A stretch of 64,000 nt of DNA from Verpa conica. Its lineage: Eukaryota; Ascomycota; Pezizomycetes; Pezizales; Morchellaceae. This document shows positions 9,460 to 35,650 of the stretch, piece by piece. The notes under the pieces were generated by a model that did not search any database, had not been told where the DNA came from, and saw only the letters and a program-made list of their open reading frames with translations. Both the position numbers and the translations under genes were made by a program. Numbering within the stretch: the stretch's first letter is position 1; each line of letters begins with the position of its first letter. Where the stretch lies: the NCBI GenBank assembly GCA_033030425.1, contig JAUFSD010000022.1, positions 1,116,001 through 1,180,000 of the forward strand, written 5' to 3'.

Positions 9460-11640
9460 ATGGCTTTACGGGGAGATGCTGCCGGGTTTGCAGCACCGGC
9501 TCTACCACAATACCCGCGCACTCCACGCACTCTACGCTCCTGGGATGTCGCATCTTTCAATATCAATAAGATGATAGGCACTGGGATATTTACGACACCA
9601 GGAACTATATTGCTTCTCACTAGGAGTAAGCGGATCTCATTGATCTTGTGGGTCGTAGGCTGGGCCCATGCATATATCAGGCATGTACCAGCAATATTTT
9701 GATTGAGTGTCTAGAATAAATGCTCGCTGCTGACTCCAATGTAAAGTACTTGTATATATATCGAGTACGGTGTTGCCCTACCTTTTACTGGCGGGGATTT
9801 GATATATGTAAGTAATCTAGCTAGCTCATTCATACATAGTTATTGTGGAGAAGTGATTATAACTCTAGTAGCTTCAAGAAGTCTGGCCATCGCTACACTT
9901 TCTCTCCACTTGTGTTTTCTCTTCGTTCTTCATACTCTTCGGAAACACCGTCGGAAATAGCCTAGCTTTTGCGAAGTATGTTATCCTCTCGTTTGAACCG
10001 GAAAAACTTACGGAAGGGGGTTGGTTGGAAAATCATGTGGATAGCCGGTTGCAGAAGTATCTTGCTATTAACATAATGACATTCGTCTGCCTGTTGTCAT
10101 ACTTTTCGACGAATTCCGGGAGGTTGCTCAACAAAGGTCTTGCTGCTTATAAGATAATCCTTTTAGTGGCAGTGTCAATCGCGGGATTCGTGACTATGGC
10201 GTTGGATAGGAATGAGTTTGGGGGCGGACAGCGGAATTCGAAACACAGGTTTTGTAATAGCTGGGGAGTCTAGTGTTGAGAAACCTAGTGTTTGGGAGTC
10301 TAGTAGTACGAAGCCAAGTCTAGGAGATTATGCTGCGGCTTTCCTACTGGTAGAATACAGTTTTAGTGGATGGGAGAACGCGAATCATGTAAGTTATTCC
10401 TGGTTAGACCTGCGTCTATAGGCTTACAGGCTGTATTTACGGCATAACGCTGGTAGCCTATGAAGTACTAATATTATTACAACTTAAGATATCTGGCGAG
10501 ATTGAAGAAGAAGAAAACAGCCTGAAAATAGGTGCGCTAATAGCTGTTACTTTGGTTGGAGCCTGCTACCTTCTGGTTAATGTAGCCTTTGTGAGTTACT
10601 CTGTGGGAAGTTTCAGTGTAGTGTGTGCTGATTTTATATGGTATAGATGGTGGCCTGTACATCTGAGGAGCTAACTGCAGAAGGTTTCTCAGGTATTTTT
10701 TCTAAAAAGGCAAATAACCCTGTTATACTAATATTCGAATGAATGCTAAATCTAATTATCCTGGAACATGAAGGCTTTCGGAGATAATAACTTTAGTAGG
10801 CACGGATATAATATACTTATTTCAGCATCTGCGATAGGGAATCTGGTAGCTGTTATCTATACAACGGCTAGAGGTAACTTGTGATAATGAACTCTCGAGT
10901 GCTAGTGATACTTCTCTCAAAGCTTTATCAATCCTACTTACAAGACACATATGCGTAGTAAAGCGCACGATTGCCCGCCAACAGGTTATGCCCTGGTACA
11001 GATTTTGGGGCTCGTCAGATTCGCGCTTTAGAACACCTACCGGTGGTCTAATTATGCATTGGATTGTGGGTACAATATTCATCGCTGTAACTCCTGTTAA
11101 GAAAATATTAGGCAAGGGAGTAGTAGCAGACAAAGGATACACTTTTATTATCAGTGCATTCATTTATGGGCGTGGAGTAATTTCCGGTAACTCTCAACAT
11201 AGCCAACTTATAGTGCTCTCGCTAAAACATTTTCTAACGAATCTCTTCTGGTAGTTATGGTTGGCTTGGGTCTCCCAAGGCTTCGCGCGCGCCTAGGAGG
11301 TCCCTCGAGTGGCTTTCGGTTTGTCTTTATGAACAAGAGACTAGTCCTCTGGATGGTGATCGCCGCATCCACAGTGCTAAACGGTGCTCTTGTTATACTC
11401 CCACCGATCCCTTCGCCAAAGCTTGACCAAATTAGATATAGCGGTTATTGGCTATTAGTAGCGAATGCCAGTGTATTTATATTTGGGCTTCACTGGTGGC
11501 TTGGGCTCACTTACGGTCTGAAATATTTGAATATTATATGCACCGAGAGGCCACCCCAAGAGGGTGCTTATTACGTGGACGGTACAAAATATATTCTTAA
11601 TTATGAAGTGGGTGAAGTTTTAGGTGGCCCTAGCAAGTAA
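9460..11640 (+). pseudogene. MUP1-like methionine/amino-acid permease, copy 1 (frameshifted)
   Basis: Eight exons by comparison with copies 2 and 3: 9460-9680, 9747-9807, 9872-10388, 10489-10590, 10647-10709, 10774-10873, 10959-11186, 11255-11640. Family signature: INKMIGTGIFTTPGT in TM1, then VYIEYG-type TM2, PWYRFWG, and the GYWLLVANA C-terminal helix; the APC-superfamily MUP1 group imports methionine at the plasma membrane. Exon 3 is 517 bp instead of 429, carries a repeat-like GAGTCTAGT insertion near 10265-10315, and is out of frame: translation meets TAG at 10271-10273 after about 227 aa, while the next segment (ESSVEKPSVWESSS..., then LGDYAAAFLLVEYSFSGWENAN) continues in another frame. 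Introns 1 and 5 would need GC donors (AG|GCATGT, AAG|GCAAAT) where the other copies have GT. Probably a pseudogene, unless unseen splicing bypasses the slip. Confidence 0.8.
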
Positions 11641-12171
11641 TTCTCGTGGTTTTTATTAACAAATTATAGGGAACAACTAAGTTTGCTAGGTGGCTCATTA
11701 GGCTTGCTGGGGGCGGGAGGGATGATAAAACGATGTAGCTTTCCTTGCAGAGTCCTTAGGAGAAGTAGATCAAGATACGGTTTTATAGCGTATAGATGTA
11801 CTGAGCGATGGAACCCCGAGATAACGCTAGATATATATTATACGTTCGCAATACTACACTTCTCCTGAGCCAGAACGAGAGGATGGAAAAGAGAGGCCAG
11901 AGTCAGACGTCCCCAAAAAACTACCAAAGCCCAAAATAAGCAAATTTTACACAAAGCCCTCCAATAACGGCATGAATGAATGAATGAATGAATGAATTTA
12001 TCATTTAAGTATATGCAATCCAATAACGGCATCGAAGTTATAGTGATATTGCATAGTGTTCGTCATGGGGGGGTCGGTCCCCCAAACTAACCGGGAAACC
12101 GCCCCGAACCGCCCCATTCCCCGGTGCCCTTTAAGAATATATAACTCATAACGAGTTATTAATATACATAG
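11641..12171. other. Intergenic space between permease 1 and kinase 1 (convergent ends)
   Basis: No gene seen. The interval receives both 3' ends. It contains a (GAAT)n microsatellite at 11973-11997 set between two direct copies of CCAATAACGGCAT (starting near 11961 and 12020), which could be a target duplication around a short insertion. Confidence 0.45.
11973..12015 (+). repeat. GAAT-tail repeat with flanking direct repeats
   Basis: Six tandem GAAT units followed by TTATCATTTAAGTATATG. The block is bracketed by direct copies of CCAATAACGGCAT. The same (GAAT)n-TWATCATAAGTA arrangement occurs at four other sites in the window, so this is probably the end of a dispersed element and not an isolated microsatellite. 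Confidence 0.45.
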
Positions 12172-15100
12172 CTAATGAACTACAACCATGGAACGCCTCC
12201 TTACAACTTCAACCATAGAGGTTCCCAGGTCACCCAAAACAATGTTAAACTGGCCCATGAAGAATTCGGCGGCTTCTATTAATTGTGGATTAGAAGTTTC
12301 TTGATTCCGCTAATTTCACATATGCATTATCAGAAATTTAGACCGGGAACAGTGTTAACGCACCTGATTGATCCTCATACCCAGGGAAATCGCATATAGT
12401 TATACATGAGAGCTTCTTTATATATTTGTTTTGATCTTCTTGCTCCTTTAGTAGGCTCTCGCAAACGGGTATCCCTGGGAGCTCATCTAAAGAGCCATTG
12501 ACCATATACGCTATGAAAGAATCCCTCCCTTCAACCGGAGTGATTTCCAGAAGATTTTCATTTCTTAAAACACGAATATCGCTCACTAGGAGATAACCGA
12601 GTTAGCTTTGCCAAAGTATCATAAGCGATATAAAGAAACTCGCAATACCCCGGACCGTTATGATCCCCGCATCCAGATAAATAACAATTTTAGCAAATTT
12701 ATCCAGTGGACTTGGAACTTGACGAGGTCGGATAGTACTCGATGTGCCGATAGGCACTGATGTCCCCGCACTACTAGACATTTCTGTGTGAAAAATTGGT
12801 GGCTCCTTAGTTGATAAGTGATACCCACTATATTAGTCGAAGTTCTTTATGGGCACTTTTGAAGTACTAACCGGTGCAATTAATGCCTTTGGGAACCATA
12901 GCTGAATCCTGGGCGTATATTCAGACTCATTGCCTCTAAGAAATATTTCTTTTATTTGTTTCTTCTTTCCTCTAAGTCCTAGCTTTTTGTGTGTTAGGGC
13001 GACCTTTGCCGCTTTGAGACTTTCAAGTGGTGTTAGTAAAGGATTATAACCTCTTTCGGCATAGAAATTTACTTTATTGGGATGTTATGGTTTGTAATGA
13101 TAGACTGGAAGTGTATTAAATCTGTAAGATCACATATTAGCTAAGGTATGTGGTCGGGGTTAGGCTATTCAACCTTTCATTTTATTGAATCTATAACGCA
13201 AAGCGTGCCCCTTAAACCCCAATTGGTACCTATTATTCCCTAGGGCGTATAACGGATCAAGTAATAGGTGCCTTTCATCGACTATATTTGCTTTGCGTGT
13301 TAGTGTGAGTCTTGTATAAACTCGCATGGGTTGTTGGGAGGTCTTGTACAACACACCAACTATCTGTGAGAATAACTCCTGGCTATGTGTATGGATCTTA
13401 ATAACTCTCCTTTCTCTATTTCTCTGCAATGCAACACCGCATTCAAACCATTTCCGGCCATTCGTGATATCAAAAAATGTGTAGGAAAGTCTCCTGTGGG
13501 AGAAAGGTTGGCTGGTTAGAATTTAGAGATTGTAAAAGATCAAAATAAATAGAGGCTTTATCGTACATGTCTTTCAGGTCAGTGTCTCCAAGGTTTTCAT
13601 CGCCGCCCTTGGTTCCCAATTGCCTAACCATATCTATCTCTGGGGAGGTACGTAGGACCCGATTCCTCTCCCTGAGGAGAATATTCTGGAGACGATCTGT
13701 AATATCTCCTACTATTGGGCGGGCTTCTTGGTGCTGGAAAGTGTCTTCCACTAGTTTCATGATATCATCCACAAAACGGTGACCAGCCCCCATTATCTTT
13801 AGCCTTTGGATCCGGTCCAATACAACCTGTTTAACCCGAAAGCTCCTCGTTCCATCAGGGTCTGGACACAGCTCGTAGAAACAAGGAGCCACTCCCCTAG
13901 AGCCAACTATAATAGCCGTGTTCCTGTCGCTCCGAAATCTTTGCAGCTCTTCTTTACCCTGAATAATATAGGTGGCCGCTTCTAGAAGAATGCAACCAAA
14001 CGACCAAACATCGAAGGTCCGGTTAATTTGACCTTGAGAGTCGATTCGCCCGTCTGGGGGGGTATAAATGATTCCGCCTGGATTTTGAGAAATTGACAAG
14101 TGACCTCTACCATTTATATCCTGGTTTATAGACTGGAAGTATGCTTGGCCAAAATCGGTGATTACAAGGGTACGTTCACTGCCGCTGCCTGTTATTAGGA
14201 TATTCGAGGGTTTTAGGTCCATGTGGTAGCCAAACCACTGACCATAAGAATCGCGACGTCTACTTTCCTCCAGGAAAGAGCTCATGCTATAAAGGGCGCT
14301 AGCTATGCCAGCTAATTGATCCCATAACCAGTGCGTCTGATATGGCCACTCGGCAATATCATCCTCAGGGGGCGGACTACCAAGATAGTCATTTAGGCTG
14401 CCATTTGCTAGAGGAAACAAAAAGTTTAGTTTGTCCCCATGGCGGTAGGTTTTGAGAATTTTGATGAGATGTTTATTTTGGAGCTTTTGAATTATTTCGA
14501 GGTTCTCTCTTTCTATATCGAACTCTGTTTGGTCGTTGTGGCAACGCAGCTCTTTTCTCGCAAATTTTGGTCTCTATTACGTTAATCATGTGTCAGAAAG
14601 CCTTGTCGTTCTATTTTACTTAATATCTCAAGGTACGTAGGGAGCTTACCGGTTCACTTATATCATGACTCGTGGGGATAAGCTCTTGGTAGCTGGGATG
14701 TATCTCAAGCTCATATACATCCCCGTATAAACCTCTCCCAATGGGGTTATCTGATTCATGGAAGGGCATGATAATGCTTTTATCAAAATTTTGATGGATC
14801 CCATCAAACCTGAGGGTTGGGGGATTTAGGTTCCACTTTCGACGGGATATTTTCTGAGCAGTTTCAAGCGAAACTTCAGCTCTGGCTCCAACGAGTCGCT
14901 GCACATTTTCTGCCGTTAACTCCCCGTAGTTGGGGTCGTAGATTCCGCCATTAATCAAGTCTACTATCAAAGGGCTCTCTTCTACCAAGATCAAGAGGGC
15001 AAGGATCTTTATGGCTGGAAAGGTTTCCTGACCACCCGAGATGCCTAAGATTCTATCGGCGTAGCTATCGATATTCCTAAGGGCATGGGATCGGAGGGAA

Positions 15101-15303
15101 GCTTGGGCTAAGTGTTTTTCGCATTCACACTCTAATAGATTAATAATTGCGTCTCTAGTTAATGCTGCTCTAATCTCGTCGATAGGGATTATTTGTTTCC
15201 GGTTAGGGTCTTCTCCTCGAGGAGGATACGCTGCGCTCCTGAGTCTTTCTCGGAGGTTTTCTCCTGCACACATCAATGGAACCATCGTGGCTCTAAGAGA
15301 CAA
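12172..15303 (-). CDS. Fungal serine/threonine protein kinase, array copy 1 (premature stop)
   Basis: Eight exons on the minus strand: 15303-14650, 14573-13567, 13493-13357, 13281-13174, 13104-12872, 12805-12649, 12585-12364, 12275-12172. Residues 1-187 form an N-terminal region I do not recognise. The kinase domain follows: Gly loop IGRGLYGDVYELEIHP (from about 188), Lys in KFARKEL (225), catalytic YHMDLKPSN (D337), ITDFGQAYF (D358), YTPPDGR and FDVWSFGCILLEA. The HRD motif is HMD. A C-terminal extension (WFECGVALQRN, later GIPVCESLLKEQEDQNKYIK) is shared by all three copies. A TAA at 13085-13087, in exon 5, ends translation after 641 aa; the remaining exons stay open and in phase (873 aa nominal). 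The kinase domain is intact, so a truncated active kinase is possible. Convergent with permease 1. Substrate unknown. Confidence 0.82.
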
Positions 15304-17659: not shown

Positions 17660-19945
17660 ATGGGAGACGCAAGCCCTAGGACCTCCGTTTCATCCACCGG
17701 CTCCACCAGCTCTATCACGAGCTCTGTTACCTCCGCCGATAGCTTCACTGGCTTAAAGCTTAGGCCACTAAGGTCCCCCACGGATGAAGTGAATCACATC
17801 ATTCATCAAGAGCAACTAATTAATAAGTTCGATATTTTATCGTTCCATGTCAACAAGATAATAGGTACTGGAGTTTTCACTACTACAGGGTCTATACTAC
17901 TCATTACCGGGAGTAAGTGGATTACACTGGTTATATGGATTATTGGATGGATCTATACGTATCTTAGGTATGTATAGGCAATATCGACGTAATTCTATTC
18001 GGATAAAGGCTCATAACTAGTGCGTATATAAAAGCTCTTTAGTATATATCGAGTACAGTAGTACTCCGGCTTGTACCGGTGGAGAGCTGGTATATGTAAG
18101 CACTTTAAACCCCTCCTATAGGCATAACGATAGCCGCTGTCAGGTGTTTACAACATTAATAGCTTAATACGGTCTGGCCTTCACCAAAACTTTTCTCTAT
18201 CTGCATTTTCTCTTGCTTTTTTTTACTCCTTGGAAACACCGCCGGGAATGGCCTGTCTTTTGCAAAGTATATGATCCTAGCCTTCGAACCAGATAAAGCC
18301 GTGGATTCTCGATTGGAAAAAATTGCCGCTATCGTTGTCGTGTCATTTGTCTGCTTCTTGAACTACTTCTCGGCAAAATCCGGAAGATGGGTTAACAAGG
18401 CCCTTTGTATTTACAAAGTCCTTCTTTTAGTGGCTGTGATTATAGCGGGATTTACAACCACTGCGAGAGACAAAGATAGCCCTGGGTTCGACGACTTCCA
18501 ACTGGTTAATGGGCCTAGAAGTTTTGGGGACTATGCTGCGGCGCTACTGCTTGTGGTTTATAGCTTCAACGGATGGCAAAATGCGAGTTATGTGAGTATT
18601 CTCTGGTTAGACTCTACACTATTATCACCTAGATAAGGTCTAGGCTATATAGGCCCTCCCTATACAAATATCCTTCAACTAGGCAACCCCCCCTCCCCCC
18701 GCGGCTGTACAAAAGTACAAATCTTGTCCTAACTACATCTTATCACAATAGTCTATTAGATACTAATGTTATGTCAAACCTAGATATTCGGAGATACACC
18801 TGAGGCGCAAACGTGTTTGACAGCGGGTACGCTCCTAGCTGTTACCTCTGTTGGCCTCCTTTACGCTCTTGTTAGTGTAGCCTTCGTAAGTCACATCCAC
18901 ATAGTAAATCTCGGCAGATTGCGTGTAGAGTACTGATATGAAACCAGATGGTAACCTGTACATATAAAGAACTAATTAGTTCTAATCCAGAAGCTATTTT
19001 TGCTAGAAGGGTAATACTCAGTTCCGTGTTAGTAACCTTCGGCTGAGTGGATAAAAAAACTAATCGTAATTACTGAATACGAAGGCTTTCGGAAACAATC
19101 CTTTTAGCAGGCATGGATATTATGTGCTAGTTGCAGTATCCTCATTTACGAATCTCGTTTCTGTTATTTACACTATGGCTAGAGGTAATCATTAAAAGAA
19201 CACCCTTGGCTAGTACTTTTTGCTTTCGAGTCTTAAATTCGCTAATAAACTTACAAGTTATGCAGTAAAGCAGAGGATTGCCCATCAATATATTATCCCT
19301 TGGTATAGGTTTTGGGGGAGGTATTCGTCATTCAAAACACCTACTGGTGGTTTTATTCTTCATTGGGCCATAACTACAATCTACATTCTTGCAACACCTG
19401 TTAAAGATGGGGTGGTATCGGAAAAAGGTTATACCTTTATCGTCAGTGTGTTCATTTATGGGCACGCGATTATTTCTGGTAACCCCTAACAAAACCTCCC
19501 TAGTACGATCACAAAAGTATTTTCTGACAAGACTCTTTTAACAGTTATGATCGGCTGCGGCCTCCCAAAACTTCCTAAGCGTTTGGGCAAGCCTTTAGAT
19601 CATTTTAATTTCGTCATTATTAATCAGGGGCTGGTGTTCTGGGTAGTCATTGTGGCTTATGCAATTCTTAATGGTGCCCTTATTGTGCTCCCGGTTATCC
19701 CTAGTTCACCAGGGTTTGTTAATGGCAGGTATCCTGGCTATTGGCTCCTCTTAGTGAATATCGCTGTGTTTATGACTGGGTACATGTGGTGGCTTGGGCT
19801 CATCAAAGGATTGAAGCACCTAAGAATCAAGGCTTGTACTGGTCAAGGGATCGAGAGTAATATAATTAACAGATATTCTCCAATCGTAAGTAGAACCTTA
19901 AGTCACATCAAGAGAACCTGTCGATTTTACTTACACCTTAAATAG
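17660..19945 (+). CDS. MUP1-like methionine/amino-acid permease, copy 2 (intact)
   Basis: Eight exons join in frame to 558 aa: 17660-17967, 18035-18095, 18163-18591, 18784-18885, 18948-19010, 19085-19184, 19266-19478, 19545-19945; all introns are GT-AG. A Ser/Thr-rich cytoplasmic N-terminus of about 70 aa precedes TM1 (VNKIIGTGVFTTTGSILL). Further landmarks are LVYIEYSS, SFAKYMILAFEPDKAVDSRL, NGWQNASY, PWYRFWGRYSSFKTPTGG and PGYWLLLVNIAVF. This matches the MUP1 branch of the APC superfamily: 12-helix plasma-membrane symporters, classically for methionine. Substrate is inferred from family resemblance only. TM2 reads YIEYSSTPACTGGE where copies 1 and 3 keep YIEYGVALPFTGG, so the loop after TM2 has diverged. 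Starts 2.36 kb from the divergent kinase 1 start and converges on kinase 2. Confidence 0.87.
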
Positions 19946-20756
19946 GATGGTAAGGGCGAAGATTCTAGAAGCTTTAAGATTATCAAATTTGCAGGCTTAG
20001 AGCGTATAACAGCGCCTGAGACCGTCTAGCTGCACATGTGGGAACCATTCTAAAGGGATTTCTCATAGAAATATTGGAACTGCGCCCCTGGGATGTTTTG
20101 TTTCGAGACGCTATATCTAGTATTAGTCGCTATATTATGTAAATATATCCAGAATTTGTAAGATATACAGCATGCTTGTGGGCCGAGGGTGCTATCCCTT
20201 TTATAGTATATGTACGTATTACCGTCGTCAAAATTAAAGATGAGTCGTCTTTAAGGGCTTGGCGCATGTATTATAGCAATCCCGCTACTTGCTGCGTACG
20301 TGTCGATGTAGCTAGGGTATGATAAAGTGATATAATAACCTTAGTTTCTCAATCATAACAGATAGACAATAGGAGAACGAGCTGTCTTTAGGCCCTCCTC
20401 TTTACCTCTCTCCATGTATTAATAGATCAAAACTCAAGCGCATTAAGTTGTACTGGTCCTAGGTTGTGTAATATGTTGGCTGGGGCTTTGTGTGATATGG
20501 TCACAATGCTACATACCTTTATATAGGTGAACATAGACGATAAATTCCTTAGAAAGTAGAGCTAGAGTCGCCCACGAGTATGGCGACAACGCGCAGTAGT
20601 ATAGTAAACTCCGAGGCTTTGTGGTGGCCACCCTGCGTATTATATAGAATTCCTTCATATATCTAAGATTACACCATATATAATATAACCTTACGAGAAG
20701 CTCTAGAGGTATTTTATAACTTAGAATATAGATTATTTAATTCTATATTCTACTAA
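19946..20756. other. Intergenic space between permease 2 and kinase 2
   Basis: AT-rich convergent intergenic region. No gene, tRNA or clear repeat found. Confidence 0.4.
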
Positions 20757-23700
20757 TTAACGGCTCAAAGAAGCGGAAAGTCTATTCTTAGTTTCGTTCT
20801 CAACTTCCTTCAGGCAATTCCTTGCGATATGGAATTCCTTTATGAAATCTCTAGTGTCTTTTAATCCCACTAAAGTCAGGAATATTCTCAACGCATACCA
20901 TAATCCGAGAAATTATGTTGATATACTAACATACCTGATGAACCCTCGTACTTGGGGAAATGTACCTCAATATATATGAGGTTTTTATATATTTTATGAT
21001 CCTCTTTCTTCTTTAGTAGATCTTCACAAGTAGGGATCCCAGAAAGCTGGTACAAGGAGTCATCAATCTTTGTAATCATATGTGTCTGGAAGGAACCCCC
21101 CTTTTTGCATGGCTTGATTGACAGCATATTATTTCCAGTATCTTCCTTCACATCAATATCATTTACTTGGGATATACCTGGGTTAGCGTTGTCAAGCCAG
21201 GGGTGCCATAAGGTGGTATAAGGAAATTCGTAATACCTGATCGGATGACCAAGATCCCCACATCAAGATAGATAACAACCCTAACAAATCTATTAAGGGA
21301 ACTTTGAGTATTGGTTTTTCCTGTGGTGCTAGTACGTCCTGCGAATGTAGTCGACGTGGATAATCTCTTAAGTCATAGGTAGATACTCATTATATCAGAT
21401 GAATCTCTTTTTGTGAGAATCCTTTCTTAAGGTACTAACCTGTGGAACTAGCGATTTTGAAGACCATAGCTGAATTCTCAGTTGTGCGTGCTTTAATCCA
21501 TCAGTCTCAGAAAACTCGTGTGAGGGCCCCTCTTTTCGGCTTATACGGCTCTCCTTGGGTTCTGCAATGATGACTTTTGCCACTTTAAGGCTTTTTTTTA
21601 TGTTAGTAGATAATTTGAACCTCTGCCCCCTCCCCATAGGGTGTAGTTTGAGCCTTACTTTATCGGAATATTTTGGTTTGTAATGATAGACTGGAAAGTG
21701 ATCATGTCTAAAATTAATTAGCAAAACCAAAATACATGTATCTATGTACCGCTAAAAGTAGAGTGGCTATCTAACCACCTATTTCACGAAACCGATAACG
21801 TAAATCAAACCCTTCGAATCCCAATTGTTTTTCGTATTCTTTTTTGTTCAGTGTATATAATGGGATAAGTAGAAGGTGTCTTTGATCAACTAAATTTACC
21901 CATGGGTTAAAACAGGTTTATAAGATCCCCAGTAGTTGAAAGGTCTGATATAACTTACCAACTATCTGTGACAGTACCTCTTGGCCACGCGTATTAATCT
22001 TGATGGATTTTCGTTTTTTATTCTTTTGTAAATCAACACTACAATCAAACCAATCGTTGTCGCCGTCGGAGAGCGTGTATTTAAGCTCCCTAGTAATAAA
22101 CGTTCAACCGGTTAGAGCCGCTAAAACGAAGTAAAGCTCGAAGAAATAAGGGGGGGAAGGTTATACACCACCGTACATGTCCTGTAGGTTATCTCTCCCA
22201 AGATTTTCATCGCCGTTCCCTGTTTTTATCCTCCTGATCTGATCAACCTCTCTAGATGTGTATTGGACCCCGGTGTTGCTTGTCCTTAGTTTGAGGAGAG
22301 CTTCAAAACGATCCGCGACAACCCTTGCTTGCGGGCGGTCCTCTTTGCGCTTGAAAGTATCCTCCACCAATTCCATGATACCATTGACAAATTTGTTATT
22401 AGCTCTCACTTTCAAATCATTAATCCATTCCAATACAACATTTTTCACACGAAAATCCATTGAATTATCTCCACATTGATAGAAGTAGGGTGTTATTCCT
22501 GAGGCCCCGGGAGTGGCGAGCGCCCTCTTAGCGTTTCTAAAAACCTTTAGTTCTTCGTTGCCTTGGATGATATAAATGGCTACTTCTAGAAGAATGCAAC
22601 CGAAAGACCAAACATCGAAGGACCGGTTGATTTTGTCTTCAGAGTTGCTTTGCTGCTCCGGAGGTGAATAAGTAAATCCACCTGGCCTTGGAGCAGTGGC
22701 TGAGCAACTTATATCGTCTTCTGCAAGCTTAAAATAGGCTTGGCCAAAATCGGTGATAACAAGGGTACGGTCACAGCCCTTGCCCATAATCAGGATGTTT
22801 GAAGGCTTTAGATCTAAGTGATAGCCAAGCCACTTACTTCCACCACTTTCCTGGAAAGAGCTCATACTAGCAAGGGCATCAGCAATACCAGCCAATTGGT
22901 CCCACAGCCAATGCCCCCAATATGGCTCGCAGGCAACATCAGTCAGGAGGTTGACAATCGAGATAATCATGGAGACTACTATCTGCAAGTGGAAATAAGA
23001 AATTTAGTTTGCCACCATGATGGTAGGATTTTAAGACTTTGATGAGATGTTTGTTTTTAAGAGTTTGGATAAGATCAAGGTTCTTTCTTTCGATATCGAG
23101 CATCTTATTATCAGTGAGGCCCTTAAGTTCTTTTCTCGCAAACTTTGGCCTCTAGTTGAGCATTTGTTAGAAAACGTTCTTATTTTACCTTAATTAATGA
23201 CTCATGATAGGGAATTTACCGGTTCATTCCCCTTGGTATCGGTGGCAACAAGCCTTTGGTATCTGGGGTGTATCTCAACCTCATACACATCACCGTATGT
23301 GCCGCTCCCAATGAGTTTCTGGGGCTCGTTGAAGGGCATGATGACACTGCTATCAAACTCCTCGTGGATCCCATTGGACTTTAGGACTGGAGGAAATAGT
23401 TTCCATTTTTTGCGGGATATGTTCTGAGCGCTTGTATTAGAGATCCCCTCAATTTTCTGTAGGATATATTCTTCTGATAGCTTCTCATAGCTGGGGTCGG
23501 AGATATTGAGCTTAACCAAGTCTAGGATCAAGGGACTCTCTTGTGTGATTATCAAGAGTGCGAGAATTCTTATGGCTGGAAAGACGCCCTGGACATCCGA
23601 GATTCCTAGGATCTTATCGGCATACCCGTCGAGTTTATCATTAGAGGAGCGATGGGAATAGGTGGAAGCTTTATTTTTGTGTTTCTCGCATGCACAATTC

Positions 23701-23843
23701 AATAGCTGAATGATGATTTCTCTTGTCAATTCTTTTTCGACTGCATTGATGGGGATGATCCGTTTCTGTAGGTTGCCTTCGCTCCGAGGGTATGCTGCAC
23801 TCTTGAGTTTATTTCGTAGACTATCCCCTACGCATTCCATCAC
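20757..23843 (-). pseudogene. Fungal serine/threonine protein kinase, array copy 2 (frameshift in kinase N-lobe)
   Basis: Eight exons with the same phases as the other copies: 23843-23220, 23151-22177, 22089-21959, 21889-21779, 21690-21440, 21366-21237, 21177-20935, 20869-20757. Exon 1 (208 aa) ends with the Gly loop IGSGTYGDVYEVEIHP. Exon 2 supplies KFARKEL, YHLDLKPSN, ITDFGQAYF and FDVWSFGCILLEV. Between ...HDYLDCQPPD and the downstream ACEPYWGHWLWDQL segment the frame slips: aligned with copy 3, two nucleotides are missing at about 22935-22950, so the upstream frame hits TGA at once. Exon 2 is correspondingly 2 nt short of the phase required at its donor. The C-terminal exons (VYHYKPKYSDKV, LSGIPTCEDLLKKKEDH, ending ASLSR) are intact; the whole would be about 859 aa without the slip. 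As read, a pseudogene, since the break lies before the catalytic loop; a sequencing error is the alternative. Confidence 0.8.
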
Positions 23844-24874
23844 GACTCTACTACTTAGAGCTACATGATCTCTATCAGACCAGGGTCACCCCTGATGGCA
23901 CCGTATAGGGAGATACATACAGCAGTGATACGGTGTGGCTCTCTAGGCCCAGAAAGTAAAGCTTTTTATAAGTATGTAGTCTCTTTGGAGTATTATGGAA
24001 TATGGAAGATCCTGGGTCGGCGGGTAGTGGTACTGTTCTTTTATCCCTCTTATAAGATTGGAGTGAATGGGGTAGGGGTGATTCAAGACGGCCGTAAAAT
24101 AGCCTCCGCCGGTACTCGGCCGTTCGAATTTCAGTAGAGTACGCTTGTATTGGTAATCGGTACTGGGCCTGCTGTTTTAGTCAGAAACCCTGTGCGCTTG
24201 ATCGTTTTGGTAATGGGGATAAAACTTTTCTAAGTACAGTCGTTCACGGGTGCGGGATACCGAGTTACAGTGAACAGGGGGTGCTCACGGTACATCTCAG
24301 CACGGAGCCAGACCCAGTGGAAGACTGTGCCTACATGTCGCTGCCAATGGTTTTGAAACCCGCAAACAGACATCCTACTTAAGCACTTGTACTATTTTCT
24401 CCAAATCAAATGTACCACGCGCAGAGCCATAAACCTAACACTTTATCCAGTTATTCGTTGAAACAAATCAAATGTCTCCTTCTGAGATTGATACATTATA
24501 TATCCATCTAGCTCTTATACAGCTACATCAAATATAACTAAATTAAACAGCCTATATGTATTAACATACGAATCTCCTGGTTCTTTACTCATAAAAGATT
24601 TTTGGGGGGAAAGCACCACATTTTATTTCCCAAGGCATTTACCCTCGTACGTATTAGGACCTTTAGATCACTGCCCAAAAGTTCCAAGCCTAGAAATACG
24701 TAGAAGGTTATGATTGATGGTATTTGCAATGAACATAAGAGGGAGTGCTAGAGCGGTTCCACTTCATTCTTACGTCTTACATATACTAGCAATGCCGGGA
24801 AGTATATCGGTCACGTGGTTTATCTTTGGTGGGAGGAACAGAATCGTCACTAAAGATAAATCATGTGATCAATA

Positions 24875-24891
24875 TACTCGGGGTAGGCAAG
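24875..24891 (+). repeat. Dispersed CTCGGGGTAGGCAAG motif, copy 3
   Basis: TACTCGGGGTAGGCAAG, followed by AAGTACCTGGAAGTGC. A more degenerate version starting near 25703 (ATATCGGGGAAAGCAAG, then AAGAACCCGACAATGCAAG) lies 0.8 kb downstream in the same orientation. The preceding bases (CAATAT) also agree between these two, so the shared unit extends beyond the core. Confidence 0.4.
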
Positions 24892-25702
24892 AAGTACCTG
24901 GAAGTGCGGTAAGGATGCACCTTTAACTGGTGAATACGAACTCTATATTTTCTGGTACTCCATGTCTGTACCCCGCGTTTATACTTTCGGATCTGATTAC
25001 AGGTGTACCGCTTTCTGTAGGGACCAGAGGCTCTAGCCGTAACCACTGTTGAGCGCTCCCCACTATGGACCTGTGATCCAACTTACGCCACCCAATGGTC
25101 ACAATGTGGGTCAATATCCAAAGCCTGCACACCATCACTAAAATAAGGGCCGCAGAAATTGGCGTAAGGAAAATCTCTCTTGAGGAAGTGCTGTCACAGA
25201 GCCAAAGCTGGTCTGGGCCCTGTAAACCGGGCCTCCCCACCATCAAGAATTACATGCCGCTCTCTACTTTTCTTATAGGCCTAAGCTATGGGCGTATTGA
25301 CGAATTCTTTCTTCTTTAACTCCTAAGCCAATACGATATTGTACGTGCACAAATATATATCAGTTATGCTGTAAAGAAATTAGTGAATTGACCGAGATTA
25401 CTAGAAATTCTTGTTAATGAGATGGTATAATAGTATTTTAGGGATTTGGTAGTAGCCTGCAAAAAGAAAGAGGGCTGATGCTGCGGGTATGTCTCTTCCC
25501 CTCTTGGAGACGAAAATCACGGATATCATAAATGCCAACCCCGATCCGTGCATACTATCATTGGCCCTACCTATAGCCAATAATATGTGCTTAGCCCCTT
25601 ATGGAATAGTCTCTAGTTACCCAGCTAGCAAGTGAAAAAGATCGACAGGTCTAACTCACTGAGAAAGGAAGCCTCTGGCATGTTTGATATGTATGTCTCA
25701 AT

Positions 25703-25719
25703 ATATCGGGGAAAGCAAG
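25703..25719 (+). repeat. Dispersed CTCGGGGTAGGCAAG motif, degenerate copy 4
   Basis: ATATCGGGGAAAGCAAG. It differs from the consensus at several bases but keeps the same upstream CAATAT as copy 3 and the same downstream AATGCAAGT as copy 1, which supports common origin. Confidence 0.3.
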
Positions 25720-26449
25720 AAGAACCCGACAATGCAAGTTTTTATTCTCACCAGTCAAACAATCGCTCATCCACCAGATGACGAATACCCGATGGCGAAC
25801 ATCTCAACACCCTGTTCGTCAAAGTGGGATTCACCGTGCTGCTTGACAAGGCGGGGCCTCGTATTTGTCGCCTGGTGCGCGCACCGTGCTTAGCGAATGT
25901 GTTGGGAGCCGGGAGAGACTCTTCGGTTGACCTGCTCCACTGTGGTAAACCCCGTACATACAGTGATCAGGGATTAACCACTAACGCTAATCCCAGTACT
26001 TGTTCGCCTTACCGCTTTAGGCCCTATTCCCCAGGGATTGATCTCGGGTAGCAGCAACACAACATGATCGCCTCAGCATTATTGTCGGAACCTGTGATCA
26101 CGCTAAAATAAATTATAAAAGATAGGATGAACTCCGGGATTAAAATATATCTGCCAATTCTCAAGATACCTCTACTTCTAGGCCGCATTGATACCCCACA
26201 AGCAGTACACGTATTTCAATAACTCTATTCTGGAACTTGAGTGTTTAACTGGTACAGGCAGCTTCTATCTTCCTCGACTGTATAACGAGTGGTGAAAACC
26301 GCTATTTGCCGTCCCCCTTAAGCATTCGCTTTCAAATTTCTAGCAAGAACTTGATCTACATATATACTTTTTAAAGGCTTTTCGTCTTCCCATCGGAAGC
26401 AGAGCCCTTTAAAGCCTTTAGCTATCTTCAACCGAGAAACCTTATCCTA

Positions 26450-26611
26450 CAGGCGACTCTATAAGAATACGGTCAGCACCAAAATTTAGGAAGAATATTC
26501 TTATAAAAGGAGCACTCTAACCGAACTAGGGCAAGCACCTTCCAAAATATACCCTAGTGAGGCTCTTTCATGTATTTCTACTAAGAATATTTTTATAGAT
26601 AGAGTCGCCTG
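26450..26611. mobile_element. TA-flanked inverted-repeat element, family C
   Basis: A 162-bp element with TA on both sides (26448-26449, 26612-26613). The left end is CAGGCGACTCTATAAGAATA. The right end in reverse complement is CAGGCGACTCTAT, then a 4-base insertion, then AAAAATA. The ends are perfect for 13 bases. No coding frame. Size, TA flanks and inverted ends fit a MITE; the transposase source is not in this window. Confidence 0.65.
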
Positions 26612-27460
26612 TATTACCTTTTTCTGACTCTTGGTCTGATATTCCTAGCCGAGGACGCTTCAGGATTGATTACCGAGAGTTGGTTTTTCCATTGATACCC
26701 CTAAAGGTGCCCCCGGTAGCCCTCCCCTGCGTAAGATTCCCCGAGCGTTCAGTCCTCTATAGATAAAGGAGAGGTATGCGCGGTACGTAGGCCGCAATTA
26801 GTGCCGGGTTGTTGCCAGCCGGTAGCGGCGCTCCGAAATAATAAAGATATTAGCTTCCAGGAGTATTGTAGATCTAAAGAAGTCAGATAATCAGCCCAAT
26901 TATGCCCCAGGTGACAATCTAGTCGGCAACAGGGTTTATAGAAGGTTCCCTGATGTCCATCGAGTGAAGCCTAGATCGAGGGGGGGGCCAGGGGCAATTG
27001 AGTTCGGCCAACCCGAATCATCGTATAGTCATGCATGGCTGCGGTACTGATCTGGGTACTGCGCTGGGGCACTCCAGAATTTCAAGAATTTTTTTTTGCC
27101 TGCGTACCATGCCCATTGCTTTTTCTTGCTTGAGCTGTACGAGTGATTTGTTTTGCGAGCTGCACTAGCACACGGGCTGAATGGCCGATCACGACAGGGT
27201 AAAGCCTGGGACGTTTTGTCTGACTAAATCACGGGTCACGCTAGGCTCTACATGCAGTCGACCCAATAACATTGCTTTTTATTCTGTACTGCTAATCGTG
27301 CAGGACTATAAGCCCTATATCAGGGGTGACAGGATTACTTAGCGACCTGGCAATATTTTCGGGTCAAAAGGCCTGATAAGTAGCACAGTGTCCCAAAACC
27401 TTGGACATCAAAAGAGGGGACTGAAGGCCTACTTTTCTTCAAGTCAAAATTCGAAGTACC

Positions 27461-29812
27461 ATGGCGCAAACTACGAATATCCGCGAGCAGGTCATATCTC
27501 CGCGCATTAGTAGTTGGGATACACCCGAGATCCTATCCCCACGCTCTGCTAGCTGGGAGCCTCTACGATTAAGACGAAGGGATCAAGAACATCACAAGCG
27601 TACTGTTCCAGAGGGTCTAAGTACTTGGGATGTTGCATCGTTCATTATGAACAAGGTCATAGGCACCGGAATATTTACGACAACCGGTACAATACTACTT
27701 CTCACAGGGAGCAAGTCAGTTACATTGGGCATGTGGGTTGTTGGGTGGGCATATGCATATCTTAGGTATGTACAAGGGGGTATCTTTGATATTTTGATAT
27801 AAGAGCCCACGGCTGATGCTCACGCCAAGTGCTGTTGTTTATATCGAATATGGTGTTGCGTTACCATTTACTGGTGGCGAGTTAATATATGTAAGTATCT
27901 AGATTCCTTTCGAGGAGCCCTAGCTAGGGGGGGTAGCTTTGGAGCCATAATTATAACTCCAACAGCTTGATGACGTCTGGGGGACACCAAAACTCCTTAT
28001 GAACTGCATTTACTCCTCGTTTTTTCTACTCCTCGGAGGTTCAACCGGAAACAGTCTTGCGTTCGCAAACTTCATCATCTTATCGTTCGAACCAGACAAA
28101 CCCGTCGACCACCGGTTACAAAAGTATATCGCTGTCAGCATAATCACCCTCGTCTGTCTCGTAAACTTTTTTTCGACGAAATTCGGGAGGGGGCTCAACA
28201 GTATCTTTTCTATCTACAAGATAGCTCTTTTAGCGGCTATATCTATAGCGGGGCTCACTACCTTGGCATCAAATAGGGGCGTAGCGATGGGGGTGCCAGA
28301 CTTTGAAAAAGACAAGAAATCTGCCCCCGAAAACTACGCTTTGGCGTTTTTGCTGGTGGTGTATAGTTTCAGCGGATGGGAAAACGCGAATTATGTAAGT
28401 TTTGAATAGCAAGTAATACCTTGTGCTATTTGCTGCTAATGACCTATCAAAGATCGGGCTAACGCTACATCAAACTTAGATAGCTGGCGAGGTTCAGGGG
28501 CGGAAAATCTTGCCGGCTGGTATGCTAGTTGCTACTACATTAATTGGGGCCTTCTATCTTCTTGTTAATACAGCCTTCGTGAGTTACTCTATCAAAGTAG
28601 TTTTAAAACATATTTGTAGAATACTAATTTTAAAATATGGTATTCCGCGATATTAGATGTTGACCTGCACATATGATGAATTAATCGACCCAAAATTTAC
28701 AACCATTTTTGCTAAAAGGGTAATAAGAATTCCTTTATTGATATCCTTTGGGTGATTAAAGCCGGGCATACGCTAAAATAATCACTTATGTATCAAGGCT
28801 TTTGGGAACAATAACTTTAGCACACATGGATATAGTATAATGATCGCATTATCTGCGGTCGGAAATCTGATATCTGTCACGTATACCACGGCTAGAGGTA
28901 GCTTTCCCCAAACTACCCATTACTCTCAAAAACTTGGCCGTCTAATTCACACGAAATACAGTAAAGCGTACAATTGCCCTTCAACAGATTATGCCATGGC
29001 ACAAATTCTGGGGCTCAAGCTCGCCTTTTGGGAAAGCTACCGCTAGTCCGCAGGCAACTGAGAAGTGTAATGGTACACCTACCACTGAAGTACATACCTC
29101 CGGGTCACCCATCATTGGTATAGCTCCTATAGGGTCACCCACACTCAGCGGTAGGACAGTTGCTACAGTAGTACCTACAGTAGGGACTCCTACTGGTGGT
29201 CTGATACTTACTTGGCTTGTAAGCACAATAATGATTGCTGCAACACCTATTGAGAACGGAGTAATATCACCTAAGGGATACGCCTTCATCATCAGTATGT
29301 TCATATACGGGCAAGCGTTCATTTTCGGTAACACAACAAAATCCTCTTTTAACATTATTACTAAAACATTTCCTAACAATTATGGTGGGGTAGTTATGCT
29401 TGGATTGGGTCTTCCAAGGCTCCACAATTTAGAGAGGCACGGTCGTTTTGTATTTACAGACCACAAGGTAATACTCTGGATTGTCTGTGTAGTTTATACA
29501 GTCCTCAGCCTTGCCCTTGTTGTACTTCCGCCAATCCCTCCCAAAAACCCCGAACTATCTAAAAACAGATACCCTGGCTATTGGCTCCTAATAGCGAATG
29601 GTGTTGTATTTTTCATCGGGGTTGTTTGGTGGTTTGGAATCACGAAATGTTTGGGATGGCTAGGAATCAGTTATAATATAGGACCATATAAGGAGAATGG
29701 AACACCTACATATACCGAAGACGGGACGAATATTATTGATTATGAAGTAAAAGTAAGCAACAACCCCAAACGGCTTTCAGAGGTTACTGCGGTTTTATTG
29801 ACAGGGAAATAG
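27461..29812 (+). CDS. MUP1-like methionine/amino-acid permease, copy 3 (intact, with loop insertion)
   Basis: Eight GT-AG exons, all in frame, give 613 aa: 27461-27765, 27830-27890, 27966-28394, 28480-28578, 28657-28719, 28798-28897, 28962-29327, 29394-29812. Exons 2, 3, 5 and 6 have exactly the lengths seen in copy 2 (61, 429, 63, 100). Landmarks: MNKVIGTGIFTTTGTILL (TM1), VVYIEYGVALPFTGGELIY, NSLAFANFIILSFEP, GWENANY, MPWHKFWGSSSPFG, PGYWLLIANGVVFF. It is an APC-superfamily permease of the MUP1 type, a plasma-membrane importer; methionine is the family's typical substrate, inferred here. Exon 7 is 366 bp against 228 and 213 in the other copies because about 50 extra residues rich in Thr, Pro, Gly and Val lie between FWGSSSPFGKA and TPTGGLILTW, in the loop before a late helix. 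The intron at 29328-29393 is 66 bp with no stop, so retention would simply add 22 residues. Confidence 0.87.
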
Positions 29813-31407
29813 GATGAATCGATAATAGGGGAGAAAATGATTAGATTTGCTAGCTGGTTGCGTATGTAGGGGGTTTTATAAATTTATTCAGTTCAATTCC
29901 ATGTAAGTTGCATGTGGTATTATATTCTTATATTAGTAAATAGGGGGAAATGGAGGGGGAAATGGAAGGCCGGGGGAAATAGTAATGCCATAGAAGGTCC
30001 TTGTATATATATGTCTAGAATCTCAAACCTTACATATTCTCAGCAACACATAAAATGCCTCATAGTGGCCCTAAAGAACTACTGTTTAGTGACTGTTTTT
30101 GGGGGGTGGTGAAGTACCATGTTAATTTCTTGGGCTATAGGGTGTTGTATAAAATTTAGTGGAGAAGTAGGGGAAGTGCCTTTTTTAGAGTATTACTACT
30201 AAATAGTCCACCCTTATGAAATCCTTTCCATTATGTTTGATATTAATTATCTTGATACTAGTTAACCTGAAGAATACACAGGTAGAATACAGATTCTATT
30301 TGCTTGTTTGCTATTGAGAGACTCTTATGGGTAGATATACATAGATAAAAGAGGTGCTTTTGATATTTTTTTACTAATCTTTATAATTTAGGTAACTCCT
30401 TTTAATGTAAAACTTTAATATGTAGATTACCAGCCCTTAAATTATACACTAACAGGTTTTTGAGTCTATCAAATATCTATGGAAAGTTTTATGTGTTGTC
30501 AAAAACACTAATTTTTAGTGTGTTTTGCCCAGCGGGCAAGTACATAATTGAAATGCGAGTACGGGGGTATCAAATTAGTTAAAATTCGAATTTACTATCG
30601 ACAGTGAACGCATGAGCCAATAATCTTATCACTAAGGTTTCGTAAGGTGTAAGTGTCTAGTACGTGCCACAGGAGTATTAGGCGAGTTGTACAAATGTGG
30701 TGGGGCATGGGGCGAGCGAACGAGATAGTGCGGTGGAGTACTAGGGTGCTAGTGGGTTATTTCTGCTATTGGTCTTAGTGGTGACTCATGGTGGATTCAC
30801 TCATTGACTCTATAGTCAATAGCGAAGCCTCGCTCCGCGTACCGGGTGCTTCTGGCAGGAGAGGAACCCTACCAAGAGTGACAAGGGTTCCTAGAGCCAC
30901 TGAACCAATTGTTGTGCTCGGAAGGGTCGTAAGGGATACATTTATTCAGAGGGGCTTAGGGAGTTCATTTTCACAAATATTTAAGTGTTGGAAGATCAAA
31001 TGCATTGCAAACTAAGTTTCTGGATACTCAAGGAGATTTTGAATACACCAAAGGAGGGTTACCATCGGAAGGTCCTAGTTCTTCTCTTCTACTTTGCCTC
31101 CAGATACACCGATTAATTCCTAGAGATCTCCTGATAGCCTCTATGAGGGAGAGTTGCATTATTAACATTATATCACCTGGGAGAGATAAATGTCTCTTGT
31201 TGGACACCTAACTATTCGGACTAGGATATTGGCCAATATAAAGATTTACGAGACTTGTAAATATTGAATATCGCGCTCCTAACCAACTGGACAAATTTTA
31301 TATCTACCAGACAGTAGATATCTTTATTTGGCCTCTTCATTTCGATCAATTGGCAATGTATAATATGAATTAGTACAAGGCCATGCTATAGTGATCTTAG
31401 AAGCTCC
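29813..31407. other. Intergenic space between permease 3 and kinase 3
   Basis: About 1.6 kb, AT-rich, the longest of the three convergent spacers. It contains a short GGGGAAATGGA-type tandem repeat near 29941-29981. Small open frames at 30788-31211 have no recognisable content. No gene called. Confidence 0.4.
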
Positions 31408-34400
31408 CTAGCGATACCGAGTCGCTATGGCATACCTCCTTTCAGCCTCATCCATAAATTCTCCGTAAGCAGTGTTATAACCTTCTATGAAACAGTCGGC
31501 CGCAGTAGATTCTACTAAAAGTTAATGTCTCTGGTTTATAATATCATAAGCAATTGTTAATATACCTGTTTTGGGGCCTGGAAAAGCAACACGTATATGT
31601 GCAATCTTTTTTCCATACTTCTCCTGATCCTCTTGCTCATTTATTAGATCTTCGCAAGTAGGGATCCCTGGAAGCTTTCCTTCAGGGTCCTTAATTCTAT
31701 ATGCTAGGAAACTTTTCCCTTGGCGAGGACAGATATACAGCCTATTTGCTTCCTTTAATACATCACTTAAGTCGTCCACTAGAGGTAGATTAAATTAGAT
31801 TGATTTTGTCATGTCAAAGTACAGCTAGGTGATGTGAAGGAATACCTCGAATTATCATAATTTCACACTTCAGATAGATAACGATTCTAGCGAATCTATC
31901 AGGGGGTTTTGGCGCTTTTCGGGGGGGTCGACCAGCTCTTGATGTACCTACAGGGGTACTGGACCTTCTCGTACTACCTGGCGTGTTTGTACCTGAGCCT
32001 GAACCAGCCTCCTGTATACCGGTATATGTTGCAAGAGTAGAAAAACTAGTGCGTGCCGATGAACCTCTAGTACGAGTAGTCTCTGGTAAACTGGAAAAAC
32101 TAGAAATACTGCGGCGACCCCTCAAAACGTGGTGAGTACCCTCTGATGTATCTATTGTAGGGGCACTAAAACTCCTCAGGAAGTCTGGTGACTCTGATTC
32201 CGTCTATAGGAATTCATTAGACGAAGCTCTTCTGGTAAATATATATATTGGGATACTAACTGTTAGAGATAGTGGATGCGGTGACCACAATTGGATTCTC
32301 AGCCCGTACCCACATTTTGCCCCGTCTTTATGGTACTGAGTATCTTCCTTTACCGTTGTTTCCGGTACCCAAATACTACTCCGGTCCTTTGACTCAACAC
32401 TAATCTTTTCCACCTCGAGGCTTTTCCAGCAGTATTAATAAGGAATTCCGGACCTTTTGGAGCCTAGATTTGGGCCTCACTCTACTAATATATCCTGGTT
32501 TGTAAGGATAGACTGAAAAAGCCTAAGATCTACATAGCCATATATTAGCTATATAGAGTGTATCTTTGAGATAAGTAGCAGCTATCAAACCTCTCATATC
32601 GTAGAATTGATAACGCAAATTGAATCCTTTGAACCCCAGCTGGCGCTTGTATTTTTCTTGAACATATAATGGGTCAAGCAGCAGAAGCTTTTGAATTACT
32701 ATATGTATTCTATGTGTTAATATTGTTTCCTTTTATTAATTAATGTAAGGTCTAGCATATATGTAACGCACCAACAAGCTGTGATAGCACCTCCTTTCCA
32801 TGTGTATGAACTTTGATGATTTCCAGTTTCTTATTTCTTTGTAATGCAACGCGACAGTCAAACCAGCGGCAATCACTACCAGGGTCAGAGAATGTGTATC
32901 TAAGTTTCCTAGTGAGTCGAAAGCCGGTCATCAGAACTATAGAAACGAGGTAAGAGTTCGGAAAAAGCCGGGAGGGGCCAAAGTAGAAGTAGACTATCAT
33001 ACATATTTTCCAGCCTATCGTGCCCGAAATTTTCATCACTTTGTGTACTCAGGGTCATAGCATGTTCTACCTCTATGGACGTATGTTGGCTTTGGACATC
33101 GGAATCGGTTGACCTTCCACTAAGGAGGCCCCGGAGATGTTCAGTAACATCTCGCGCTATTGGGCGCTTGTCTTGGTGGTTGAATGTGGCCTCCACCAGT
33201 TTCATAATACCATTCATAAACGGGTGATCAATCTCATCTTTCAAATATTTGATTTGGTCCGATACAGCCTTTTTAATCTTAAAGATCTTCTTTCCGTCAG
33301 ACTCTACAATATTGTAGAACCAGGCCGCTATCCCTACAGAACCGGGAAAGATGGGTTCGCTCTTCTTCTCGCGAAAATTTCGCAGGCTCTTGTGGCCTTC
33401 CGTACCTTGAGTGATATAGATAGCCGCCTCCAGAAGGATGCAACCGAAAGACCAGACATCGAAAGACCGGGAGATCTGGCCATTTGGGTTGATTTCGCCA
33501 TCAGGAGGTGCATAAACAGTTCCGCCATAGTTTGCCGGAATGGCCGAATAGCTATCATTATCCTTGTTTATACGCTTGAAGTAAGCTTGGCCAAAATCAG
33601 TGATCACAAGAGTACGCTTACCGTTCTTGCTTGTGACCAAGATGTTTAAAGGTTTTAGGTCCAAGTGATAGCCAAACCACTTTCTGTAAGAGTTAGGAAC
33701 CCCTTCCTCCCCCTCCTGAAAAGAGCTTATTTTATCAAGGGCACCGGCAACTCCAGCCAATTGGTCCCACAGCCAGTGGGTCCAGAAAGGCGAACTGACG
33801 ACGTCACCTTCAGGAGGTTGTCCCTCCAGATAGTCGTGTAGACTACAATCTGCAAGAGGGAACAGAAAATTTAGGTTTTCGCCATGCTGATAGGTCTTGA
33901 GGATTTTGATAAGATGCTCGTCCCTAAGCTTTTGGACAAAACTAAGATTTTCTTTCTCGGTGTCAAACTCCGCCTTATTGTGGCGAATAAGCTCTTTCCT
34001 CGCAAATTGCTGCGGTACCTAGTCATGTATTGGAAAATGCTGCTACTTATAACCGGAAAAATGGGAGCTTACCGGTTCATTCTCAGAGCCGAGGATAAGC
34101 TTTTGGTACGTGGGGTGTATTTCAATTTCGTACACTTTCCCTGACGAGCCTTCCCCAATGAGTCTATTGGATTTGAAGGGCATGATAATGTTTTTGTCGA
34201 ATTTTTCGTGGAATGGGTGGGATAAAAATGGGGGGTTTAGACTCCACTTCTTGAGAGATATACTCCGAGCACCAGTGGAGGGCATCATATTTTTAGTAAG
34301 CTTGAGCAACTTCTTCTCTGTTAGACCATCCCAATGGGGATCACGTATACCACCCATAAACAGGTCTATTATCCAGTGGCTCTGGTTTACCAATATCAAG

Positions 34401-34684
34401 AGTGCGAGAATTTTTATGGCTGGATAATCTTCTCGGCCGGGGGTTTTTCCTAAGATTGTGTTGGCAAAGGCACGGGCGTCCGTACTGCTTGAAATGCCAT
34501 TTTCGCTAGCCCGTAATCTGTGTTGCTGGCATGGGCAGGTCAGTAGCCTGACGATTTCCTCCTCTCCTAGATGCTTTTCTATCTCGTCGAGGGGGATAAT
34601 TTGTTTAACCTGGGGGTCTTCGCCCCCAGGATATTCTACACTCTCTAGTTTCTCTCGAAGACCTCCCCCAACACACGCAGCCAT
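31408..34684 (-). CDS. Fungal serine/threonine protein kinase, array copy 3 (frame slip after the kinase domain)
   Basis: Eight exons: 34684-34073, 34018-33003, 32908-32772, 32698-32591, 32512-32261, 32203-31846, 31778-31566, 31514-31408. The kinase domain is intact: IGEGSSGKVYEIEIHP loop at the end of exon 1 (204 aa), FARKEL, YHLDLKPLN, ITDFGQAYF, VYAPPDGE, FDVWSFGCILLEA. Exons 3 and 4 (137 and 108 bp) match copy 1 exactly. Exon 5 (252 bp) does not fit its phases: the frame from SVYPYKPGY stops at TAG 32400-32402 (661 aa), while the homologous LEVEKISVESK continues in another frame, so one net nucleotide is gained (or two lost) at about 32420-32450. Exon 6 is 358 bp against 157 and 130 in the other copies because of a Ser/Thr/Arg-rich insertion (SISSFSSLPETTRTRGSS). 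A truncated active kinase is possible. Convergent with permease 3; role unknown. Confidence 0.8.
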
Positions 34685-35527: not shown

Positions 35528-35650
35528 CTCGTAATGCCCTGACGTCTCCAGAATGGACTGCTATTGCATATCATACAAAATCATAGACTTGGCATAGTTT
35601 TCTATGGTATGCAATAGCAGTCCATTCCGGAAACGTCAGGGAATTATGAG
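35528..35650. mobile_element. Palindromic MITE-like element, family A copy 2
   Basis: 123 bp, same length and orientation as 8352-8474, again flanked by TA (35526-35527, 35651-35652). I count five differences between the two copies: T/C and G/A in the left arm, C/T in the spacer, and C/A and C/T in the right arm. The two copies bracket the whole permease-kinase array (27 kb apart). Confidence 0.75.

What the first reader, a model, noticed from the sequence alone, without database searches (positions are those of the whole stretch)
9460..34684. Three tandem copies of a convergent permease-kinase gene pair
A MUP1-like permease (+) and a fungal Ser/Thr kinase with unrecognised N- and C-terminal extensions (-) alternate three times in 25 kb. 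All permeases share eight exons with the same phases, and the three kinases likewise share eight exons. Copies are diverged enough that this is not a recent duplication, yet the pairing and orientation persist. Retained linkage of a nutrient transporter and a signalling kinase could mean a functional unit (for example transporter control by phosphorylation), or only that the duplication unit contained both. Functional linkage is inference; the arrangement is seen directly.
Basis: partly seen in the sequence, partly recalled or inferred. Interest (0 to 1): 0.75.

Follow-up and report, generated by a model that had tools for sequence, protein, structure and literature searches.

The report
Ancient triplicated permease-kinase gene block
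A pair of neighbouring fungal genes, one for an amino-acid transporter and one for a protein kinase, was copied in tandem long ago to give three pairs; nothing found here shows that the two genes work together, and the kinase copies look damaged.

Summary
The arrangement is real: three permease genes (+) alternate with three kinase genes (-) at 9460-34684, all with eight exons and matching phases. Copies are 47-58% identical in protein with dS about 1.3-1.7; dN/dS of 0.23-0.30 in both gene types shows long purifying selection. The permeases form one clade (100/100), so the simplest history is one founding pair duplicated twice. Trees cannot order the copies. Pairing was not seen elsewhere in this genome: 0 of 5 other related permease loci, and 0 of the 7 examined of 10 other related kinase loci. 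Permeases 2 and 3 are intact. In pair 2 an intact permease sits beside a kinase broken in its catalytic domain, which argues against obligate partnership. The kinase 'extensions' recur in other Pezizomycotina kinases. Best reading: an ordinary ancient tandem duplication of a two-gene block, kinases perhaps recently decaying. Functional linkage is unproven, not excluded. Gene order in other fungi could not be searched.

The parts
9460..11640 (+). P1, MUP1/LAT-like amino-acid permease; exons 9460-9680, 9747-9807, 9872-10388, 10489-10590, 10647-10709, 10774-10873, 10959-11186, 11255-11640; two GC donors; frame changes inside exon 3, between 10194 and 10271
12290..15285 (-). K1, kinase with N- and C-terminal extensions; exons 14650-15285, 13567-14573, 13357-13493, 13174-13281, 12872-13104, 12649-12805, 12364-12585, 12290-12309; in-frame TAA at 13087-13085 in exon 5 unless a later acceptor is used
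17660..19945 (+). P2, permease, reading frame intact to a TAG; exons 17660-17967, 18035-18095, 18163-18591, 18784-18885, 18948-19010, 19085-19184, 19266-19478, 19545-19945
20757..23840 (-). K2, kinase; exons 23220-23840, 22177-23151, 21959-22089, 21776-21889, 21440-21690, 21237-21366, 20935-21177, 20757-20869; frame break in exon 2 between 23003 and 22941, within the catalytic domain
27461..29812 (+). P3, permease, intact, 613 aa; exons 27461-27765, 27830-27890, 27966-28394, 28480-28578, 28657-28719, 28798-28897, 28962-29327, 29394-29812
31408..34684 (-). K3, kinase; exons 34073-34684, 33003-34018, 32772-32908, 32591-32698, 32261-32512, 31846-32203, 31566-31778, 31408-31514; frame break in exon 5 between 32434 and 32402

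Best explanation
An old tandem triplication of a two-gene block in a filamentous ascomycete, probably of the Pezizales (inferred from the nearest relatives of two of its other permeases). One founding pair, a LAT/MUP1-type amino-acid permease facing a kinase of a family seen in other Pezizomycotina, was copied twice. Each permease most likely imports amino acids, the copies perhaps differing in substrate or expression (inferred from family). Each kinase most likely acted on its own targets. The two kinds sit together because the copied segment carried both, not because one controls the other. The kinases now appear to be decaying, the permeases less so. Shown: order, orientation, exon structure, age, past purifying selection, breaks in the simplest splice models. 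Inferred: transport activity, absence of a functional link, that the breaks are real and not assembly errors.
For: Array permeases form one clade, 100/100. The array kinases match K1 at 54-66% by piece, the 10 other places in the genome at 24-38%. dS 1.31-1.57 for permeases and 1.34-1.70 for kinases, dN/dS 0.23-0.30. No such pairing at 5 of 5 other related permease loci and at the 7 examined of 10 other related kinase loci. All three kinases and P1 carry a break in the simplest splice model, P2 and P3 do not. In a simple simulation a kinase left unconstrained for 0.05 changes per site shows one or no stop in 3-6% of runs (P1: 20%), so the breaks look young beside a duplication with dS above 1.3.
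Against: Both gene types were kept through near-saturating synonymous divergence in all three units, which could mean that the pair as such was useful. The breaks may be assembly errors; no reads are held. All four breaks can be avoided by alternative, mostly weak, splice sites. Kinase monophyly against the database protein P0001 is unsettled (6% of bootstrap trees, 97/98); if P0001 falls inside, the kinase copies are older than that organism's split. No gene order from other fungi could be examined.
Confidence: 0.75

Rival explanations
1. Functional unit: the kinase controls stability or trafficking of the neighbouring permease, so selection kept them linked through two duplications.
For: Both types kept in all three units over dS above 1.3 with dN/dS of 0.30 or less. 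[quoted passage not shown] K1-P2 and K2-P3 are also head-to-head neighbours, 2.4 and 3.6 kb apart, so shared upstream control is conceivable there.
Against: No pairing at the related loci examined elsewhere in the genome. P2 is intact beside a kinase broken in its catalytic domain. In one search the longest permease branch is P2 but the longest kinase branch is K3; three pairs only, and the kinase branches are nearly equal. The convergent partners do not share a promoter region. Between nine flank segments blastn found, apart from a dispersed repeat and a trivial overlap, only two matches of 20-21 bases.
Confidence: 0.13
2. The founding pair entered or survived as a block from a lineage related to Dothideomycetes (horizontal transfer or deep differential loss), then was triplicated.
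For: Among the few sequences sampled the array permeases join Verruconis and Diplodia (Dothideomycetes) with 100/99, apart from the genome's own five MUP1-like loci, Tuber and Sphaerosporella (Pezizales). The nearest named kinase relative by E-value is from Bathelium (Dothideomycetes).
Against: Only four database permeases and seven database kinases were in the trees, branches are long, and the kinase tree does not place the Pezizales relative P0006 (Trichophaea) firmly. GC3 of the array genes is 0.43-0.45, against 0.40-0.65 in 12 other open frames, not all of them known genes.
Confidence: 0.1
3. The breaks are assembly errors, or the simplest splice models are wrong, and all six genes are intact. 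(Compatible with each of the readings above.)
For: One break per gene and an otherwise open frame. Alternative splice choices exist.
Against: The breaks are of different kinds (a TAA codon, frame breaks). Long open frames of 305-1338 codons at nine other loci speak weakly for the assembly; they were not checked as genes.
Confidence: 0.25

Closest known systems
MUP1-like / L-type amino-acid transporters (AA_permease_2, PF13520; TIGR00911)
   Same: P3 matches AA_permease_2 in exon 3 and LAT-type structures over residues 52-354; GTG(I/V)F and YSF(S/N)GW(E/Q)NA motifs kept in P1-P3 (read; their meaning is recalled). The relatives P0013, P0014 and P0016 match TIGR00911, below its cut-off.
   Different: Best database relatives only 33-35% identical; a separate clade from the genome's own MUP1-like loci.
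Pezizomycotina kinases with the same layout (P0002, P0003 and others); no Pfam family outside the kinase domain above cut-off in P0002, P0003 and P0006
   Same: N-terminal region (hhalign probability 98%, 177 columns, against P0002, P0003, P0008) and kinase domain; weaker C-terminal similarity (probability 49%, E 0.00017, against P0002-P0005). In a low-confidence model of P0002 the kinase domain matches IRAK, RIPK, JAK and BRI1 structures about equally.
   Different: Tandem with permeases; 30-31% identity to P0002 and P0003; broken simplest splice models.
Npr1 and Hal4/Hal5 kinases of yeast, regulators of permease turnover
   Same: Kinases that bear on nutrient-permease stability.
   Different: No sequence relationship was tested here; the array kinases read HMD, HLD and HLD where most kinases have HRD (the comparison is recalled).

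Membership tests
AA_permease_2 / LAT-type permeases | Match to PF13520 above its cut-off | tested here: met
   P3 exon 3 56.3 bits against 27; P2 and P3 found again over the cut-off in the genome scan, P1 not listed there
AA_permease_2 / LAT-type permeases | Intact reading frame through the transmembrane core | tested here: met
   P2 and P3; P1 not met in the simplest model
MUP1 high-affinity methionine permease (function) | Methionine or cysteine uptake | not testable with these tools
   no assay
Protein kinase (PF00069) | Match above cut-off with catalytic K, D and DFG | tested here: met
   58.9, 42.7 and 50.2 bits against 31.7 (the K2 piece is the part after its break); motifs
Protein kinase (PF00069) | Continuous catalytic domain frame | tested here: inconclusive
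   Met for K1 and K3; K2 broken in the simplest model; assembly error not excluded
Pezizomycotina kinases of the P0002/P0003 layout | Shared N-terminal region, kinase and C-terminal region in one protein | tested here: inconclusive
   N-terminal region and kinase met; C-terminal match weak, and the C-terminal part of K1 and K3 lies beyond a break
Npr1/Hal5 kinases | Sequence membership and permease control | not tested
   no Npr1 or Hal5 sequence was compared
Conserved permease-kinase functional unit | Pairing kept at independent loci or in other species | tested here: inconclusive
   Not seen at 5 of 5 other permease loci and the 7 examined of 10 other kinase loci in this genome; gene order in other fungi not searchable

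The most novel reading that the evidence does not exclude
The block is a selected transporter-kinase module: each kinase governs the permease it faces, three divergent modules give three independently tuned amino-acid uptake routes, and the module is now being dismantled kinase first.
Probability: 0.08. Interest if true: 0.5.

Novelty: new member of a known kind. Interest (0 to 1): 0.25.

Why it matters
If the pair is only a duplication unit, it is a tidy example of how tandem copying creates lasting gene neighbourhoods that look functional. If the linkage proved functional, it would be a genetic handle on kinase control of one particular amino-acid transporter outside yeast.

Tried and rejected
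Chance adjacency copied by independent events: rejected, since the array permeases form one clade (100/100) and the array kinases are each other's nearest relatives in the genome. Kinase monophyly against P0001 is conflicting: array kinases monophyletic in 6% of bootstrap trees with all rows, 97/98 with a kinase-domain set, where AU tests disfavour P0001 with any one of them (p 0.005-0.028).

Congruent trees as proof of co-duplication: tried, not decisive. Permeases favour (P1,P2) at 82/80, kinases (K1,K3) at 72/54, and the AU tests of the alternatives reject none at 0.05 (p 0.084-0.39).

P2 as a broken gene: my first model had a wrong acceptor; with the AAG acceptor exon 2 is 61 bases and the frame is intact.

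The same block in another organism through P0001 (its contig is 11,682 bases long): the four permease exon-3 hits, at E up to 10, have longest contigs of 21,440, 53,916, 43,176 and 5,470 bases, so no link was seen; identity of contigs is judged by length alone.

Background adjacency: of 14 non-array AA_permease_2 loci two have a PF00069 match within about 3.3 kb among the rows listed (that listing is cut). Both stretches were fetched; the kinases look ordinary (Chk2-like and CDK10/11-like, labels recalled) and match the array kinases only weakly (best E 7e-5).

The 129-bp repeat bracketing the array as the cause of duplication: rejected, copies 96% identical are far younger than the array.

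Structure of the extensions: the model has mean pLDDT 56; the fold matches listed cover only the kinase domain. A PH-like C-terminal domain is only an impression from the strand order.

Full report
Observation. The window lies at C22:1116001-1180000 of a 45.8-Mb, 25-contig genome. Six genes alternate: P1(+) K1(-) P2(+) K2(-) P3(+) K3(-), coordinates under parts. Each has eight exons, and the phases match within each gene type once the frame breaks are allowed for.

Reading frames. P3 translates to 613 aa without a stop. P2 is open to a TAG at 19943-19945 once its first acceptor is set correctly. P1 changes frame inside exon 3; many alternative introns would avoid this, mostly with weak sites. 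K1 meets a TAA early in exon 5; later acceptors would avoid it. K2 loses frame inside exon 2, in the catalytic domain, between blocks that match K1 at residues 1-70 and 72-339 of the query, and the nine single-intron alternatives listed have poor donors. K3 loses frame in exon 5, with a GTGAGG-donor alternative among 27. So 4 of 6 genes, and 3 of 3 kinases, are broken in the simplest model. No reads are held, so assembly error remains possible.

Age and selection. Between copies, protein identity is 50-58% (permeases) and 47-53% (kinases), Nei-Gojobori dS 1.31-1.57 and 1.34-1.70, dN/dS 0.23-0.27 and 0.24-0.30 (stretches near the breaks left out). dS at this level is close to saturation. In a simple simulation a kinase unconstrained for 0.05 changes per site carries one or no stop in 3-6% of runs, P1 in 20%; half of the observed dS, taken as the depth of one lineage, is about 0.65. 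The genes were thus constrained for most of their history and any loss is late. The simulation counts stops, not indels, and uses uniform substitution.

Families. P3 is an AA_permease_2 protein whose solved relatives are LAT-type transporters. The nearest database proteins are 33-35% identical, from Tuber aestivum and Verruconis gallopava. In the tree the array permeases are one clade and join Verruconis and Diplodia; own-genome locus L038 pairs with Sphaerosporella (100/100), and L037 falls in the same group as Tuber and that pair (100/99), with short branches to Tuber; hence the inference of a Pezizales host. The kinases match Pkinase. The best database relative, P0001, is 51% identical over what looks like exon 2 alone. 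Of the longer relatives, P0002, P0003 and P0008 share the N-terminal region and P0002-P0005, more weakly, the last C-terminal region; P0006 (Trichophaea) matches over 63% of the K1 query. The dispersed own-genome kinase L042 matches from residue 9 of the query on. Some weaker relatives carry DUF7580 or HeLo. The extensions are therefore family features, at least the N-terminal one. A low-confidence model of P0002 places the kinase domain near IRAK, RIPK, JAK and BRI1. In place of HRD the three kinases read HMD, HLD and HLD.

Linkage. In the own genome, the related permease search found 5 places outside the array and the related kinase search 10. Ten-kb stretches were read for all 5 and for 7 of the 10 (the C25, C20 and C15 kinase places were left out). 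None holds the partner at E 0.001. The pairing is thus known only from this array.

Function. Yeast precedents exist: passages of PMC8050425 describe TORC1-Npr1-Ldb19/Art1 control of Mup1, and the abstract of PMC7176151 describes Hal4 and Hal5. No paper on such a gene pair was seen in the listings (1, 0 and 1 papers). Since P2 is intact next to a broken K2, and since partners are absent at the other loci examined, the simplest reading is that the two genes are neighbours by descent.

Verdict. A real and old tandem duplication of a two-gene block; functional linkage unproven. Interest modest.

Noticed in passing
window 8349-8477 and 35525-35653: A 129-bp nearly palindromic (foldback, MITE-like) element, 96% identical between the two places, one on either side of the array; dozens of further copies in the genome, six of them at 97-99%.
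   Followed up: partly
window about 24784-24878, 26448-26602 and 12054-12124: Three other short dispersed repeat families; the first is also partly self-complementary.
   Followed up: partly
roughly L036:3030-5070 (C22, left of the window): A MUP1-like gene about 14 kb left of P1, by eye with another exon layout, and no related kinase in its 10-kb stretch.
   Followed up: partly
window 19870-20029: P2 may have a ninth exon: a GTAAGT...TAG stretch just before its TAG stop is followed by an open frame to 20029.
   Followed up: no
window 3714-5837: A histone deacetylase domain (PF00850) flanks the array on the left.
   Followed up: no
window 42663-43349: A DUF1774 gene piece (PF08611) to the right of the array.
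   Followed up: no
P0007, P0010, P0012: Weaker relatives of the kinases carry DUF7580 or a HeLo domain, a possible link to fungal self-recognition or cell-death proteins (function recalled).
   Followed up: no
own genome: Many kinase loci show the same split into two matching pieces around profile position 127, often with a TAG inside, suggesting a shared intron in a large kinase family.
   Followed up: no
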